From: a virus
Length of the DNA stretch: 62,622 nt
IMG/VR virus record: IMGVR_UViG_3300048672_000233
Span: 1-62,622 of that record
Reading direction: 5' to 3' (one strand)
In this document: one piece after another, positions 8,301 to 35,342 of the stretch
Layout of the letters: each line of letters opens with the position of its first letter
Position numbering within the stretch: position 1 is the first letter of the stretch
Translations under genes and position numbers: made by a program
Notes under the pieces: generated by a model
What the model was told of the DNA's origin: nothing
What the model saw: the letters and a program-made list of their open reading frames with translations, nothing else
The model's database searches: none

Positions 8301-8935
8301 CTAGGCTTCTCGGCTTACTTCATTGAGCAGAGGTTTAAGGCTCCGCTTGATATGTAGTGCCATTAAACGCTCTTTACGTTCTTGAAACTCTAACCCTTCG
8401 AGTAAATACACGGTGTTAGCGCGTTGTGCTTGGCAGTTGCGCCAAGCACAACGCGGTTGATTAAGTCACATTCATTCGAGAAATGGTGGCTTTCAGTAGT
8501 TTTACCCTCACGAGACACCACAACAGCATCGGTCATTGGGTGGAAGTCCAACCGCATATCGGAGCGCACCTTTGCTTGAGCTTCTTTTTCAAGCTGTTTC
8601 TTTTCAAGCTGGATATAATAGAGTCGTACTTGCTTACCTATATCATTGTTCTGCACCATAGCAATCTGCTTTGCCATATCGGGGGCTATGAAGTAGTCGA
8701 TAGGCTGGAAGCCACTATATTCGCCGCCGTCCGTTTTGGCGACGGTAATATAATCCACATTTTCTACAAAGCTATACTTTTCAATACGCTGTCTAATCCA
8801 ATTAGAGAAGTCACGACCCACACATAGACATTCATGTAAGTCTCTAGCATTAACAGCGTTAATTAAGGCACCTTCTCTATGTGGGGCTAAGGTTTTGTTC
8901 AATGTAGCGAAGGTTTTTGTGTCTAGTAATTTCAT
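8301..8935 (-). CDS. AntA/AntB-type phage antirepressor, apparently frameshifted near the C-terminus
   Basis: Residues about 20-120 match the AntA/AntB antirepressor domain (VNARDLHECLCVGRDFSNWI; EKYSFVENVDYI; YFIAPDMAKQIAMVQ). The intact frame from ATG 8935 stops at 8390 (181 aa). A second frame takes over near 8440 and runs to a stop at 8301, with a convincing charged helical tail (VYLLEGLEFQERKERLMAL). The switch falls at a 13-bp hairpin (8421-8454). This is either a real frameshift mutation, a programmed shift, or an assembly indel. Antirepressors of this type bind or displace phage repressors. Two structured RNAs and a promoter lie directly upstream. No matching repressor is visible in the window. 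Confidence 0.7.
8421..8454. repeat. 13-bp perfect inverted repeat at the antirepressor frameshift
   Basis: GCGTTGTGCTTGG (8421-8433) is followed, after 8 nt, by its exact complement CCAAGCACAACGC (8442-8454). In RNA it is a strong hairpin exactly where the antirepressor reading frame appears to change. Confidence 0.8.
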
Positions 8936-8948
8936 TTTCTTTTCCCAT

Positions 8949-9055
8949 AAAAAAAGACGCTCTGCTTTAACTGGGTGGAATTAGCCGAATAATATGCTAC
9001 CAGTTATGCTTAACGTCTTTGTTTAAGTATTCGTTTAGGTGATTCCACTCACAGC
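8949..9055 (-). ncRNA. Predicted structured leader or small RNA 2 (pseudoknot-like, ends in terminator)
   Basis: Reading the minus strand, an outer stem AAAGACG (9020-9014) pairs with CGTCTTT (8959-8953), which is followed by a T run ending at 8949. Inside it, TAACTGG (9006-9000) pairs with CCAGTTA (8974-8968) and stacks on TAGC (8999-8996) with GCTA (8985-8982). The bulge between GCTA and CCAGTTA is exactly ATTCCAC (8981-8975), the full complement of GTGGAAT at 9048-9042 upstream, so a pseudoknot can form. A sigma70-like promoter lies just upstream. It could be a free RNA or an attenuator in the antirepressor leader, which starts at 8935. Confidence 0.55.
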
Positions 9056-9059
9056 ACGC

Positions 9060-9088
9060 AATGTACAGATATACCGTGAGGTTGTCAA
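9060..9088 (-). promoter_or_regulatory. Promoter for small RNA 2 / antirepressor
   Basis: TTGACA (9088-9083), 17-nt spacer, TACATT (9065-9060) on the minus strand. The predicted start is near 9053. Confidence 0.6.
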
Positions 9089-9097
9089 ACAAATCTC

Positions 9098-9117
9098 GTG
9101 GCTGAATTTTCAGCCAC
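9098..9117. promoter_or_regulatory. 20-bp palindrome just upstream of a promoter
   Basis: GTGGCTGA (9098-9105) and TCAGCCAC (9110-9117) around ATTT. It lies between the terminator of small RNA 1 and the -35 box at 9088, so it may be an operator or a backup terminator hairpin. Confidence 0.5.
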
Positions 9118-9121
9118 CAAT

Positions 9122-9225
9122 AAAAAACCCCGAAACTCAGATGGGTCAAGCATCTAAACATCGGGGCTGAGAGTATAAACTCTTAGATTTTAAAACGCCT
9201 TGACCACGCAAATCTAAAAATTCAT
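9122..9225 (-). ncRNA. Predicted small RNA 1 with complementary hairpin loops
   Basis: It is bounded by a near-consensus promoter (9230-9258) and an intrinsic terminator. On the minus strand, hairpin 1 pairs TTAGATTT with AAATCTAA (plus 9183-9190 and 9210-9217). Hairpin 2 is AGAGT-TTAT-ACTCT. The terminator hairpin pairs CCCCGA with TCGGGG (plus 9128-9133 and 9161-9166), carries an inner AGATG/CATCT stem, and is followed by six T. The 7-nt apical loop of the terminator, CTTGACC, is the exact complement of GGTCAAG in the loop of hairpin 1, so a kissing interaction is possible. No ORF fits inside it. The function is unknown. Confidence 0.6.
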
Positions 9226-9229
9226 GCCT

Positions 9230-9258
9230 TTTATACCAAAGAATGTGTGGTAGGTCAA
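9230..9258 (-). promoter_or_regulatory. Promoter for small RNA 1
   Basis: TTGACC (9258-9253), 17-nt spacer, TATAAA (9235-9230) on the minus strand. The region downstream has no gene until the antirepressor, which supports an RNA product. Confidence 0.7.
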
Positions 9259-9261
9259 ATA

Positions 9262-9288
9262 AAAACCCTGAGTGCCAAAACACTCAGG
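9262..9288 (-). terminator. Intrinsic terminator at the end of the leftward early operon
   Basis: On the minus strand CCTGAGTG-loop-CACTCAGG (plus 9267-9274 and 9281-9288) is followed by GTTTTTATTT. It lies about 55 nt after the last operon gene. Confidence 0.8.
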
Positions 9289-31299: not shown

Positions 31300-31791
31300 A
31301 TGGACGAAGAAACAGCAATTATCCCTATTACATGGGACACAACAAGCCCAGAGAGCCTCTGGAATGCCGCACTACATAATGCAGAGTTTGAACAGCTAAC
31401 ACAGCAAGAAACGCCCGTAACTAAAGATGATGAGCGAGAAGCCCGTGCAATAGTGTTTCAAACGCCACACGCACCAGAAAAACCCTCTACACCGGGCGCA
31501 GCTAAAGCCGTAAAACGCTTGTTGTCTAAATACGACTTTTCATTAAGTGATGAATCCTTACGCCTTAGAACTTATGCCATATCAAGATTATTAGACCTTG
31601 CAGAAAGTGAAAAAGAGAATATCGCCCTATCTGCTATTGAGAAAATAGGCAAAATTGCTGAGGTAGGTCTATTTGAAACAAAGATAAGTGTTGATATAAA
31701 CAGTAAGTCCACAGATGAGCTTGAGAACGAACTAAAAGCGTTGCTGGGAAAGTACGTTGGGAGCAATGTGATTGAAGGTGAAGTGTTGTGA
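31300..31791 (+). CDS. Probable terminase small subunit, 163 aa
   Basis: First gene of the structural operon and overlapping the large terminase start by 4 nt. The central helical part (AAKAVKRLLSKYDFSLSDES, then YAISRLLDLAESEKENIALS) fits small terminase or HTH-type DNA-recognition proteins, and the acidic C-terminus (STDELENELKALLGKYV) fits a large-subunit contact. Assignment rests mainly on position and size. Confidence 0.6.
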   Translation: MDEETAIIPITWDTTSPESLWNAALHNAEFEQLTQQETPVTKDDEREARAIVFQTPHAPEKPSTPGAAKAVKRLLSKYDFSLSDESLRLRTYAISRLLDLAESEKENIALSAIEKIGKIAEVGLFETKISVDINSKSTDELENELKALLGKYVGSNVIEGEVL

Positions 31792-34700
31792 CAGCACAGA
31801 TAACCAATGAGATTCTACTCAAGATGAGTGAAACCGACCGCATAAAGGCTCTTAAGATGCTGTCTGCGCTCGAAAAACGTAAAACACAAGAGGAAGCCCA
31901 GCGCAGCTTTATTAAGTTCGTAGAGCAGATGTGGGACGGGTTTATATCAGGACCCCACCATAAGAAAATGGCAGATGCCTTTGAACGGGCAGCTAAAGGA
32001 GAATTAAAACGCCTTATTATCAACATGCCACCTAGACATGCACTAACATTAGACACGCTAATCCCGACAACCTCAGGGATGAAATCTATGCGTGACATTG
32101 CTGTAGGAGATGAAGTATTCCATGTGTCAGGAAAAGCTATTAAAGTATTAGGTAAGTCCGAGGTTTTTAATAACAGGGACTTATATAAAGTTACAACCGA
32201 TGATGGGTGTGAAGTTATTTGTGATGGCGCACATTTATGGACAGTTAGAATAGATAGAAAGCGCGATATATACCACACGCACACAACAGAAAACCTATGG
32301 AAACGCCAACAAGGGTGGTTTTTACGCACTAAACGCGGCGGTGGGGTCGAATTAAAGTCCCCAGAGGTATGGGAAAAAGCCAACTACGAACCCGTACGCT
32401 TACCTATGCTGCCCGCATTTGGGGTAGCACAATACAGCGAAAAAGACCTAATAGTTGACCCTTATGTTTTAGGGTTGTGGTTGGGTGATGGTACAAGCCT
32501 ACAAGCAATTATAACTAGCCACGATGATGACGCTGTATGTATTCGCCCAGAAATAGAGCGCAGAGGATATAAAACCTCAGACCAAGCAACGTACTTCACG
32601 TTTGGGATATTAGGGCTTAAAGCACAACTGCGCGAAATAGGGGTGTTAGGTAACAAGCATATACCACAAATATATTTAGAAGGGTCAGAAGCACAACGTA
32701 GAGATTTACTCAAAGGATTAATGGACTCTGACGGTAATGTGAGCAAAAAAGGGCAGTGTTTCTTTTCACAGAAAAGCAAAGTGTTCATCGAACAAGTGCG
32801 CGTACTACTAGCTAGTTTAGGTATTAAAAGCACAATATATGCAACAGAAGCCAAAATAGGGAATGTTTCATATGGTATGCACTATCAATGCTCTTTTTAT
32901 GCTAGTGACATTGCTTTTCTACACCGTAAAGAAGAACGAACACTAAAAACCAAGCGTACGTTTGGGCGATATATAAGTGTGGAAAAACTTAATAATGTAG
33001 GGGATACACAGTGCATTAAAGTAGATAGTGGCGATGGGTTATTTTTAGTGAGTGAAGGGTACGTCTGTACACACAATACAAAAAGCGAATTCGCTTCCTA
33101 CCTGCTACCCGCATGGTGGCTAGGTCTATATCCCGATGCCCAGGTAATGCAAATTTCACACACGGCGGAGTTAGCCGAGGGGTTTGGTAGAAAGGTTAGA
33201 AACTTAGTTGATTCTGATGATTACCACGAGGTATTCCCTAACACCGTGTTAAGTAAAGACTCTACAGCGGCGGCTAGGTGGAATACAAGTAAAAAAGGTA
33301 TCTATCATGCTATGGGTGTCGGCGCGGCTGTTGCCGGGAAAGGTTGTTCCCTTTTGGTGCTTGATGACGTAATCAGCGAACAAGAAGGTAAAACAAGCAA
33401 CCCAGTACCACACAATAACGTCTACGACTATTACATGACAGGACCTCGTCAACGGCTTCAACCTGGCGGGGTAATAATACTCGTAATGACACGCTGGAGT
33501 AAGATAGACCTTACAGGAAGGCTTGTTGATAACATGATTAAGAACCCTGACGGTGACCAGTGGGAAGTAATTGAGTTCCCTGCTATTTTGCCGTCAGGTA
33601 AACCCTTATGGGAAGCCTTTTGGTCACTTGAGGACTTGCTCCGCACCAAAGCAACTATTGACTCACGGTTTTGGAATGCTCAGTATATGCAGAACCCAAC
33701 CTCTGAGGAGGGCGCGATTATTAAGCGCGAGTGGTGGCGTATATGGGGTAAGAAAAACCCACCCCCAACAGAGTTCATTCTCATGTCTTGGGATACCGCC
33801 TACGAAAAACACAACCGTGCTGACTACAGTGCGATGACCGTGTGGGGTGTGTTCTATTATGAGGACGAGGAAACAGGCGCAACGCAGCCCAATATAATGC
33901 TGCTCGACGCAGTTAAAAAACGTGTAGAATTCCCTGAATTAAAACAATGGGTGTATGATGCGTATAATGAATGGCAACCTGACTCGATGATTGTTGAAAA
34001 ACGCGCTTCAGGAGCATCACTTATTCAAGAGCTACGCCGTATGGGTATTCCCACACAAGAGTTCACACCAGGGAAAGGGAATGATAAAATCTCAAGGCTA
34101 ACCGCCGTCGCCGATATATTTGCATCAGGCTTTGTTTGGTGTCCTGATACGCGTTGGGCGCAAGAGCTTATGGACGAGGTAGCGTCGTTTCCCGCTGGAC
34201 AACACGACGATTTGTGCTTGGTAGGCAACACACAAATTCTAATGGCAGATGGTACAACGCGCAGAATAGACGCGCTGGTAGGAGGGGAATATATACACAC
34301 GCCGTTAGGTAATAAACGCATACAGTTAGCATCCCTAACAGGTATAAGCCCTACATGGGTAGTAGTCACTAGCGGTGGAACTTTAGAAGGGAGCGCAGCA
34401 CATAGAGTATTTACCCAAAGAGGGTGGGTACGCCTTGACGAATTGAGTACACATGATACCATACACTCAGTATCTACTACGGAGGAAACATCATGGCAGC
34501 AAAAATTACCCGCACTGACAGAAAAGTTATTAAATTCAATGGGCGAACCTATCAACTGTATAGTGATAGAAATTATTATGAACGTGTTGGGGGCAGGTAT
34601 TTTCTACATAGAGACGTGTGGGAATACTATAAGGGAACTATCCCAGAAGGCTATCAAATCCATCACATTGATGGTGACAAAGAGAACAACGATATTGCCA

Positions 34701-35342
34701 ACCTCGAAATGTTGTCTAGGGAAGCTCACAGACAAGAACATAAAGAAACCTACGCAGCCTTTGGTACACGCCCTGATAGACTTGAACACTTGGCTAATAT
34801 CAGAGCTAAAGCATCAGAATGGCATAAATCACCCGAAGGCAGAGAGTGGCATAAAACCCACGCAAAAAACTCTATCCACCAAGAAGGCGTGGCTAAAGCG
34901 TGGAGTAATGTTGTACCAGAAGATAAACAGTGTACAGTATGTGATAAAACATACCCTGCTAAAGACCTGTCAAGAGCTAAATACTGTTCTAGTGAATGTT
35001 TATATAAAGCTGCAAGGCACAGAAAAAGAGCCAAATGGCTTACAACAGTTCGTCAATGCAGTAAATGTGGTAAAGACTACACAGCACCTTCGCAAGCAAC
35101 TAAGTATTGCAGTTCAGAATGCCGCAGTCTTAAAGGTGTACCCAACTACAAGAACAGAAAAGGTATATAATCTAAGTATATCGGAAAGCCCTGTTTATTA
35201 TGCTAACGGACTCCTTACGCACAACTGCGATACGGTAAGTATGGCGATGATGTTATTCCGCCAAGGTGGACATATTAGGACAAGGTTAGATGAGCCAGAT
35301 GAAGAAATTACACACCGCAGACACAAAAGAGAATACTACTAA
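31788..35342 (+). CDS. terL: Terminase large subunit with two inteins, 1184 aa precursor
   Basis: The mature protein is about 501 aa. The ATPase part has IINMPPRH-TKSEF (P-loop region, split by intein 1) and LLVLDDVI (Walker B), with VMTRWS further on. The RNase H-like nuclease has SWDTAYEKH, MIVEKRASGAS and PAGQHDDL-CDTVSMA (split by intein 2). It cuts and translocates DNA into proheads. The GTG start at 31788 overlaps the stop of the small subunit; the stop overlaps the portal ATG. Both inteins sit in catalytic motifs, so the enzyme is inactive until spliced. Confidence 0.9.
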   Translation: MTAQITNEILLKMSETDRIKALKMLSALEKRKTQEEAQRSFIKFVEQMWDGFISGPHHKKMADAFERAAKGELKRLIINMPPRHALTLDTLIPTTSGMKSMRDIAVGDEVFHVSGKAIKVLGKSEVFNNRDLYKVTTDDGCEVICDGAHLWTVRIDRKRDIYHTHTTENLWKRQQGWFLRTKRGGGVELKSPEVWEKANYEPVRLPMLPAFGVAQYSEKDLIVDPYVLGLWLGDGTSLQAIITSHDDDAVCIRPEIERRGYKTSDQATYFTFGILGLKAQLREIGVLGNKHIPQIYLEGSEAQRRDLLKGLMDSDGNVSKKGQCFFSQKSKVFIEQVRVLLASLGIKSTIYATEAKIGNVSYGMHYQCSFYASDIAFLHRKEERTLKTKRTFGRYISVEKLNNVGDTQCIKVDSGDGLFLVSEGYVCTHNTKSEFASYLLPAWWLGLYPDAQVMQISHTAELAEGFGRKVRNLVDSDDYHEVFPNTVLSKDSTAAARWNTSKKGIYHAMGVGAAVAGKGCSLLVLDDVISEQEGKTSNPVPHNNVYDYYMTGPRQRLQPGGVIILVMTRWSKIDLTGRLVDNMIKNPDGDQWEVIEFPAILPSGKPLWEAFWSLEDLLRTKATIDSRFWNAQYMQNPTSEEGAIIKREWWRIWGKKNPPPTEFILMSWDTAYEKHNRADYSAMTVWGVFYYEDEETGATQPNIMLLDAVKKRVEFPELKQWVYDAYNEWQPDSMIVEKRASGASLIQELRRMGIPTQEFTPGKGNDKISRLTAVADIFASGFVWCPDTRWAQELMDEVASFPAGQHDDLCLVGNTQILMADGTTRRIDALVGGEYIHTPLGNKRIQLASLTGISPTWVVVTSGGTLEGSAAHRVFTQRGWVRLDELSTHDTIHSVSTTEETSWQQKLPALTEKLLNSMGEPINCIVIEIIMNVLGAGIFYIETCGNTIRELSQKAIKSITLMVTKRTTILPTSKCCLGKLTDKNIKKPTQPLVHALIDLNTWLISELKHQNGINHPKAESGIKPTQKTLSTKKAWLKRGVMLYQKINSVQYVIKHTLLKTCQELNTVLVNVYIKLQGTEKEPNGLQQFVNAVNVVKTTQHLRKQLSIAVQNAAVLKVYPTTRTEKVYNLSISESPVYYANGLLTHNCDTVSMAMMLFRQGGHIRTRLDEPDEEITHRRHKREYY
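32040..33077 (+). other. TerL intein 1, 346 aa, LAGLIDADG type, Ala1 start
   Basis: It begins ALTLDTLIPTTSG and ends SEGYVCTHN before Thr+1 (TKSEF). The first residue is Ala instead of Cys or Ser, as in KlbA-type inteins. The block B equivalent is CDGAHLWTV. Endonuclease motifs YVLGLWLGDG and LLKGLMDSDG are both intact with their acidic residues, so homing activity is plausible. Confidence 0.85.
34215..35225 (+). other. TerL intein 2, 337 aa, carrying an out-of-frame HNH gene
   Basis: It begins CLVGNTQILMADG and ends YYANGLLTHN before Cys+1 (CDTVS). The block B equivalent is EGSAAHRVF and block F is EKVYNLSISESPVYY. The splicing parts take up about 92 N-terminal and 35 C-terminal codons. The about 210 codons between show no known domain in this frame but overlap the HNH gene at 34493-35170 in another frame, with no stop in the intein frame. 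Confidence 0.85.
34493..35170 (+). CDS. HNH endonuclease nested out of frame inside TerL intein 2, 225 aa
   Basis: This is a complete gene in the +2 frame relative to terL. GGAGGA (34481-34486) lies at ideal distance from ATG 34493. The nuclease core is YFLHRDVWEYYKGTIPEGYQ, then IHHIDGDKENNDIANL and EAHRQEH, a clear HNH_3 fold. Two C-terminal zinc-binding repeats follow (CTVCDKTY...YCSSEC and CSKCGKDY...YCSSEC). The last about 15 codons overlap intein block F. The protein would be made independently of splicing and could drive homing of the intein. Confidence 0.88.
   Translation: MAAKITRTDRKVIKFNGRTYQLYSDRNYYERVGGRYFLHRDVWEYYKGTIPEGYQIHHIDGDKENNDIANLEMLSREAHRQEHKETYAAFGTRPDRLEHLANIRAKASEWHKSPEGREWHKTHAKNSIHQEGVAKAWSNVVPEDKQCTVCDKTYPAKDLSRAKYCSSECLYKAARHRKRAKWLTTVRQCSKCGKDYTAPSQATKYCSSECRSLKGVPNYKNRKGI

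What the first reader, a model, noticed from the sequence alone, without database searches (positions are those of the whole stretch)
9122..9258. Small RNA 1 with own promoter, terminator and perfectly complementary loops
Seen: TTGACC-17-TATAAA, then about 104 nt ending in a T6 intrinsic terminator. The 7-nt apical loop of the terminator hairpin (CTTGACC) is the exact complement of GGTCAAG in the loop of an 8-bp hairpin near the 5' end. No ORF fits. Inference: a folded kissing-loop RNA of unknown function, perhaps a regulator of the antirepressor or of host RNA.
Basis: partly seen in the sequence, partly recalled or inferred. Interest (0 to 1): 0.72.

Follow-up and report, generated by a model that had tools for sequence, protein, structure and literature searches.

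The report
Phage leader RNA with kissing terminator
A short phage RNA folds into two hairpins, the second of which is its own transcription stop signal, and their tips match base for base; the same design recurs with changed but still matching tips in about 30 other virus contigs, mostly just ahead of DNA-replication genes, so it is probably a new family of RNA switches.

Summary
On the minus strand a promoter (TTGACC-17-TATAAA, 9258-9230) leads into a 104-nt RNA (9225-9122). It has a long 5' hairpin (20 bp, not 8), a terminator hairpin and a T6 run. The two 7-nt loops, GGUCAAG and CUUGACC, are exact complements (fold z = -6.6). It is not an isolated curiosity. About 30 other viral contigs carry the same architecture. 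Where the loops change (GGACUAG/CUAGUCC, GUGCAAG/CUUGCAC, GAAUCAG/CUGAUUC, GAGCAG/CUGCUC) they stay complementary, and the stems covary strongly. The RNA begins at its own promoter. In most relatives its T-run lies about 10-80 nt before a replication gene (DUF1376, Lin1244_N, DnaD-like loader, primase). A second leader type with a different terminator, found upstream of the same DnaD-like gene, keeps an equivalent loop-to-terminator pairing by covariation. The window has a second unit of that design (9054-8949), 13 nt before the AntA antirepressor start. I found no Rfam family or paper for it; C4 and skipping-rope were tested and rejected. Best reading: a new family of phage leader RNAs that gate a downstream gene through a terminator held in a loop-loop contact, releasing a small RNA. 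The pairing is well supported. Its regulatory effect, and whether it acts in cis or in trans, is inference.

The parts
9230..9258 (-). Promoter of RNA1: TTGACC-17-TATAAA
   Evidence: Sequence; 12 of 13 homologous elements have a -35/-10 pair with 8-11 of 12 consensus matches, -10 usually ending 7 nt before the hairpin base (the window itself misses that scan's rule because its -10 ends in A)
9175..9225 (-). RNA1 5' hairpin (HP1): 4 bp, 4-nt 3' bulge, 16 bp; 7-nt loop GGUCAAG at 9205-9199
   Evidence: MFE; 9 of 11 outer pairs and 3 of 4 inner pairs have double changes in alignment A1
9126..9168 (-). RNA1 terminator hairpin (HP2): 8 bp, 2x2 internal loop, 8 bp; 7-nt loop CUUGACC at 9150-9144
   Evidence: MFE; 11 of 17 pairs with double changes
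9122..9127 (-). T6 run, 3' end of RNA1
   Evidence: Sequence
9122..9231 (-). Whole RNA1 element as matched by covariance model R1
   Evidence: 82.8 bits, E 8e-15 (the window is one of the 12 training sequences); single copy in the record
9098..9117 (-). Perfect 8-bp hairpin GTGGCTGAAAATTCAGCCAC between the two units
   Evidence: weak sub-threshold Rfam c4-a1b1 hit, 15.7 bits against cut-off 46.7; role unknown
9060..9088 (-). Promoter of RNA2: TTGACA-17-TACATT
   Evidence: 10 of 12 matches
9039..9052 (-). RNA2 5' hairpin GUGA-GUGGAA-UCAC, 6-nt loop at 9048-9043
   Evidence: Fold
8953..9020 (-). RNA2 branched terminator hairpin with unpaired AUUCCAC (8981-8975), complementary to the RNA2 loop; T7 at 8955-8949
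   Evidence: Fold z -3.16; same topology as type II leaders, but model R2 scores only 6.2 bits here, so not shown to be homologous
8390..8935 (-). AntA/AntB antirepressor gene, start codon 13 nt after the RNA2 T-run
   Evidence: Pfam PF08346, E 1.6e-23; PHROG anti-repressor Ant

Best explanation
RNA1 is a member of a new family of phage leader RNAs. A dedicated promoter starts the transcript at or near the base of a 5' hairpin; about 50 nt further on an intrinsic terminator forms whose apical loop is complementary to the first hairpin's loop. Shown by sequence comparison: two hairpins, a terminator, and selection for 7-bp (once 6-bp) loop-loop pairing. Inferred: (1) most transcripts stop at the T-run, releasing a stable ~100-nt RNA; (2) read-through supplies the gene behind it, which in most relatives is a replication initiator or helicase loader with its Shine-Dalgarno directly after the T-run, and in the window is AntA, behind a second unit of similar design; (3) the loop-loop contact, formed as loop 2 emerges from RNA polymerase, tunes how efficiently the terminator works. 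I cannot tell whether pairing favours or hinders termination.
For: Loop covariation: among 160 loci fetched by protein and not by loop, four 7-nt loop types were found, all complementary; a fifth, GAGCAG/CUGCUC (L256), came from the model without any complementarity requirement. Pair counts: 90.6% of cells paired against 34-48% when slid; kissing helix 7 of 7 kept, 4 with double changes (the 100% is partly by construction). An unbiased second set, type II leaders of the same DnaD-like gene, keeps loop-to-junction pairing in 95.5% of cells with 3 of 6 pairs doubly changed. Position: T-run usually 10-80 nt before a same-strand gene, identified as DUF1376 primosomal, Lin1244_N replication initiation, DnaD-like loader, Phg_2220_C/HTH_36, PriCT-2 primase. 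With T-run, SD and ATG so close (for example CCCTTTTTTTTGGAGCAAAATTATG) there is no room for another promoter, so the gene must be read through the terminator. Promoters lie directly upstream. U-G and G-U pairs and a fixed strand argue for RNA rather than a DNA cruciform.
Against: No transcript data. In the window AntA is 187 nt beyond RNA1 with another promoter and terminator between, so RNA1 itself may not control AntA. A full 7-bp kiss between two long adjacent hairpins joined by a few nucleotides is sterically demanding in cis (the bulge could allow a bend; not modelled). Covariation cannot tell cis from trans pairing. A few members (L057, L072, L087) are not followed by replication genes. 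None of the named phages tested has the family. The window phage's similar-sized relatives lack both AntA and the RNA.
Confidence: 0.55

Rival explanations
1. Trans-acting self-recognising small RNA: released copies pair loop 1 to loop 2 of other copies, including nascent ones, so termination or stability depends on how many phage genomes are being transcribed. This would be plasmid-like copy control or superinfection immunity.
For: Neighbouring replication genes; fully complementary 7-nt loops suited to loop-loop binding, duplex energies -6.9 to -9.3 kcal/mol for the 7-nt pairs; end pairs fixed and inner pairs varying, as if specificity changes; loop mutants define new incompatibility groups in plasmid antisense systems (PMC4485353).
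Against: Both partners are in the same RNA, so cis pairing is the simpler reading; one copy per record and no second target seen; plasmid systems use antisense RNA from the opposite strand.
Confidence: 0.2
2. Sensor of a ligand or a phage protein: the kissing complex is a docking platform, as in terminator-embedded riboswitches or Rop-bound kissing loops.
For: The HMP-PP riboswitch shows that a terminator can carry a pseudoknot that controls read-through (PMC6478431).
Against: No conserved unpaired ligand pocket; the loops change freely as long as they pair, unlike the near-invariant HMP-PP aptamer; no shared metabolic gene.
Confidence: 0.12
3. Structural or homo-oligomeric RNA made in quantity, without a leader role.
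For: Own promoter and terminator, very stable fold; phage-linked ROOL and GOLLD RNAs assemble through intermolecular kissing loops (PMC12286853).
Against: The element is only ~100 nt and lies directly before a translation start in most relatives.
Confidence: 0.08
4. C4-like antisense RNA that silences the antirepressor mRNA.
For: AntA is the next gene on the strand; weak c4-a1b1 hit between the two units.
Against: The Rfam C4 model hits phage P1 (68.8 bits) but not the window or relatives; the conserved complementarity is internal.
Confidence: 0.04
5. Ordinary terminator plus coincidence, or a DNA-level palindrome.
For: TTGACC also occurs as the -35 hexamer here, and the loop pair is palindromic in DNA.
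Against: Covarying loops and stems, low chance rate, different -35 sequences in relatives.
Confidence: 0.01

Closest known systems
HMP-PP (thiS) riboswitch, terminator-embedded aptamer (PMC6478431)
   Same: An intrinsic terminator in a 5' leader that carries a pseudoknot and controls read-through
   Different: There near-invariant nucleotides bind a ligand; here loop sequences covary freely and the pairing partner is a separate 5' hairpin loop
Plasmid replication-control antisense RNAs with kissing loops (ColE1 RNA I/II, R1, pIP501, pT181; from general knowledge and PMC4485353)
   Same: Short complementary hairpin loops; control of a replication gene; pIP501 and pT181 act by transcription attenuation (general knowledge)
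   Different: Those pair two RNAs made from opposite strands; here both loops sit in one RNA
Phage P1/P7 C4 antisense RNA (RF01695) and phage P4 CI RNA (from memory)
   Same: Small phage RNA in the leader of an antirepressor or replication operon
   Different: C4 model does not match; no antisense target found; P4 CI not tested
int-alpA RNA (RF02996)
   Same: Structured RNA upstream of DUF1376 genes in related phages (L188, L190), the same position as this family in L152/L155
   Different: Unrelated fold and sequence; the window and family members do not reach its threshold
ROOL and GOLLD phage RNAs (PMC12286853)
   Same: Phage-encoded, kissing loops conserved by covariation
   Different: Much larger, multimeric cages, often near tRNA islands, not leaders of replication genes

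Membership tests
C4 antisense RNA (RF01695) | Matches the C4 covariance model | tested here: not met
   P1 positive control 68.8 bits; no match in the window or four relatives at E <= 1
C4 antisense RNA (RF01695) | Leader of an ant-type gene | tested here: met
   AntA downstream, though relatives have replication genes instead
skipping-rope RNA (RF02924) | Matches the model (consensus: closed multiloop GAGG..GGAAAgGG) | tested here: not met
   No match in the window or nine relatives at E <= 10; consensus seen differs. No strong positive was found to act as control
Any Rfam 15 family | Gathering-score match | tested here: not met
   0 matches in the whole window; none at the element in 12 relatives
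Intrinsic-terminator attenuator leader | Promoter, structured leader, intrinsic terminator, then RBS of the controlled gene | tested here: met
   Relatives. Window RNA1: the controlled gene is not directly adjacent
Intrinsic-terminator attenuator leader | Regulated read-through | not testable with these tools
   Needs transcription assays
Kissing-loop RNA | Loop-loop complementarity kept by compensatory changes | tested here: met
Kissing-loop RNA | Physical loop-loop contact | not testable with these tools
   Needs probing or structure
Terminator-embedded riboswitch | Conserved unpaired ligand-binding nucleotides | tested here: not met
   In A1 loop positions vary with pairing kept
Plasmid-type antisense copy control | Inhibitor RNA transcribed from the strand opposite its target | tested here: not met
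   Both complementary loops lie in one transcript on one strand

The most novel reading that the evidence does not exclude
Phages carry a self-recognising copy-number sensor: each terminated leader RNA exposes the loops that recognise the terminator or first hairpin of the next nascent leader, so replication-initiator (here antirepressor) expression depends on the number of transcribing genomes. Drifting loop sequences would define mutually blind phage groups, like plasmid incompatibility groups.
Probability: 0.17. Interest if true: 0.88.

Novelty: new variant of a known kind. Interest (0 to 1): 0.74.

Why it matters
No described RNA family that I could find in Rfam or in the searchable open literature joins a 5' hairpin to its own transcription terminator by covarying loop pairing. 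It recurs across unrelated phages in front of replication genes, and a second fold in the same position has a matching contact. That points to a general, undescribed way in which phages time or limit replication genes, testable with single loop swaps in a reporter.

Tried and rejected
Rfam at gathering score over the whole window and at E <= 10 near the element: nothing credible. Skipping-rope RNA, recalled as a two-hairpin pseudoknot: wrong fold, no match. C4 RNA: not met. Leader peptide: frame broken in L267/L268. Genome contigs pattern scan: of 14 hits only L139 (Bacteroidetes MAG) folds as a member, L138 doubtful, the rest chance. Model R1 in 369 Gammaproteobacteria genomes: no hit, and no positive control. 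Named phages with DUF1376, AntA or DnaD-like genes or related terminases: no R1 hit. Weak R1 hits W13 (14.7 bits, not followed up) and L410 (fold looked at) treated as chance. Type II model R2 does not recognise window RNA2 (6.2 bits), so RNA2 is claimed by topology only. Literature: no paper found with the loop sequences or the design.

Full report
What is there. The window is a 62.6-kb viral record with AntA, ThyX, a DUF3310 protein, an HNH nuclease and a DUF927 protein in this region. On the minus strand, between the DUF3310 gene (ends 9344) and AntA (starts 8935), lie two promoter-hairpin-terminator units in tandem. The MFE leaves exactly those two 7-nt loops open; z = -6.64.

Is it more than chance? 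The same scan finds a hit in 1 of 200 window-like random sequences. A stricter pattern gave 19 stretches, 13 of them already among these; the six new ones include clear members, and two (L131, L135) fold less cleanly.

Do the loops covary? To avoid selecting on the loops I fetched 160 loci by neighbouring proteins: P0001 (DUF1376) and P0003 (DnaD-like). Scanning for any complementary 7-nt loop pair found four loop types: GGUCAAG, GGACUAG, GUGCAAG, GAAUCAG. L155 and L152 are clear homologs (same gene, same outer stem) with different, still complementary loops. Twelve sequences align almost without gaps (A1). Counting pairs: 90.6% of cells paired against 34-48% for slid partners; double changes in outer HP1 (9 of 11 pairs), inner HP1 (3 of 4), kissing helix (4 of 7) and terminator (11 of 17). 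Because the scan demanded complementarity, the 100% for the kissing helix is partly by construction; L256 is the independent case: found by model R1 alone (53 bits), it has 6-nt loops GAGCAG/CUGCUC. The window RNA scores 82.8 bits but is in the training set.

A second, unselected test. Upstream of the same DnaD-like gene, 11 other distinct sequences carry a different leader (type II): a short 5' hairpin with a 6-nt loop and a branched terminator hairpin with a 7-nt unpaired junction. The loop is complementary to the junction in 95.5% of cells, with double changes at 3 of 6 pairs, although nothing in their selection required it. Window RNA2 has this topology: loop GUGGAA (9048-9043) against unpaired AUUCCAC (8981-8975) inside a terminator hairpin whose T7 ends 13 nt before the AntA start. 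Model R2 does not recognise it (6.2 bits), so this is likeness of design, not shown homology; the chance of such a 7-nt match is of order 0.002.

Where it sits. In relatives the RNA is on the strand of the downstream gene, with the T-run usually 10-80 nt before it. Genes next to it or next but one: DUF1376 primosomal protein, Lin1244_N replication initiation, DnaD-like helicase loader, Phg_2220_C/HTH_36 initiator, phrog_270 initiator, PriCT-2 primase, Prim-Pol/DUF3987; a few HNH or other genes occur. Several members read T-run, GGAG, ATG with no room for another promoter, so the gene must be reached by read-through. Upstream, 12 of 13 tested elements have a -35/-10 pair, most with the -10 ending 7 nt before the hairpin base. 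Other DUF1376 phages have an int-alpA-like RNA in the same place.

What it most likely does. Promoter, 5' hairpin, terminator, RBS is the anatomy of an attenuated leader. The conserved extra is a contact between the first hairpin and the terminator. I conclude that this is a leader RNA family whose terminator is set by a loop-loop contact and whose terminated product is a ~100-nt RNA. Pairing is supported by covariation; attenuation is inferred from anatomy; the direction of the effect, and cis or trans action, are open. In the window the output is probably the AntA cassette, guarded by two such units. Similar-sized relatives of the phage lack both AntA and the RNA, which suggests a mobile cassette.

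What it is not. No Rfam 15 family at gathering score. Not C4 (P1 control positive, window negative). Not skipping-rope. Not a ligand riboswitch of HMP-PP type, since the loops are free to change while pairing. Not a leader peptide (stops in L267/L268). Nothing found in the open literature. Tests here are sequence-based only; no transcript was seen.

Noticed in passing
window 8949-9088, minus strand: Second promoter-hairpin-terminator unit (RNA2) with a 7-nt match between its first loop and an unpaired stretch inside its terminator, 13 nt before AntA.
   Followed up: partly
L235, L239-L241, L243, L246, L248, L252, L254, L259, L264, upstream of the DnaD-like gene: A second leader RNA family (type II) with loop-to-junction pairing kept by covariation; model R2 also hits L245 (107.7 bits) and L257 (81.8 bits).
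   Followed up: yes
L153-L231, about 100 nt upstream of DUF1376 genes: Another conserved leader (GAAACACGGCUAGG ... GAAAAG ... CCUGCCG.GUUUC); two examples (L188, L190) pass the Rfam int-alpA threshold, most were not tested or did not pass.
   Followed up: partly
L005, L006, L010 upstream of antirepressor genes of Stx and Bordetella phages: sRNA-Xcc1 RNAs (RF02221) lie upstream of AntA/AntB-type antirepressors, so unrelated RNAs also occupy this position.
   Followed up: no
window 9098-9117, minus strand: Perfect 8-bp hairpin GTGGCTGAAAATTCAGCCAC between the two units; weak c4-a1b1 resemblance.
   Followed up: partly
window 9267-9288, minus strand: Strong intrinsic terminator just upstream of the RNA1 promoter, insulating the unit from the DUF3310 gene.
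   Followed up: no
window 31788-35342, plus strand: 1184-aa large terminase gene whose matches to other phages fall into two separate pieces, suggesting an intein or a large insertion.
   Followed up: no
L359 and L360, reverse strand, loop at 643: Possible further member of the design with 6-nt loops AGUUAA/UUAACU.
   Followed up: no
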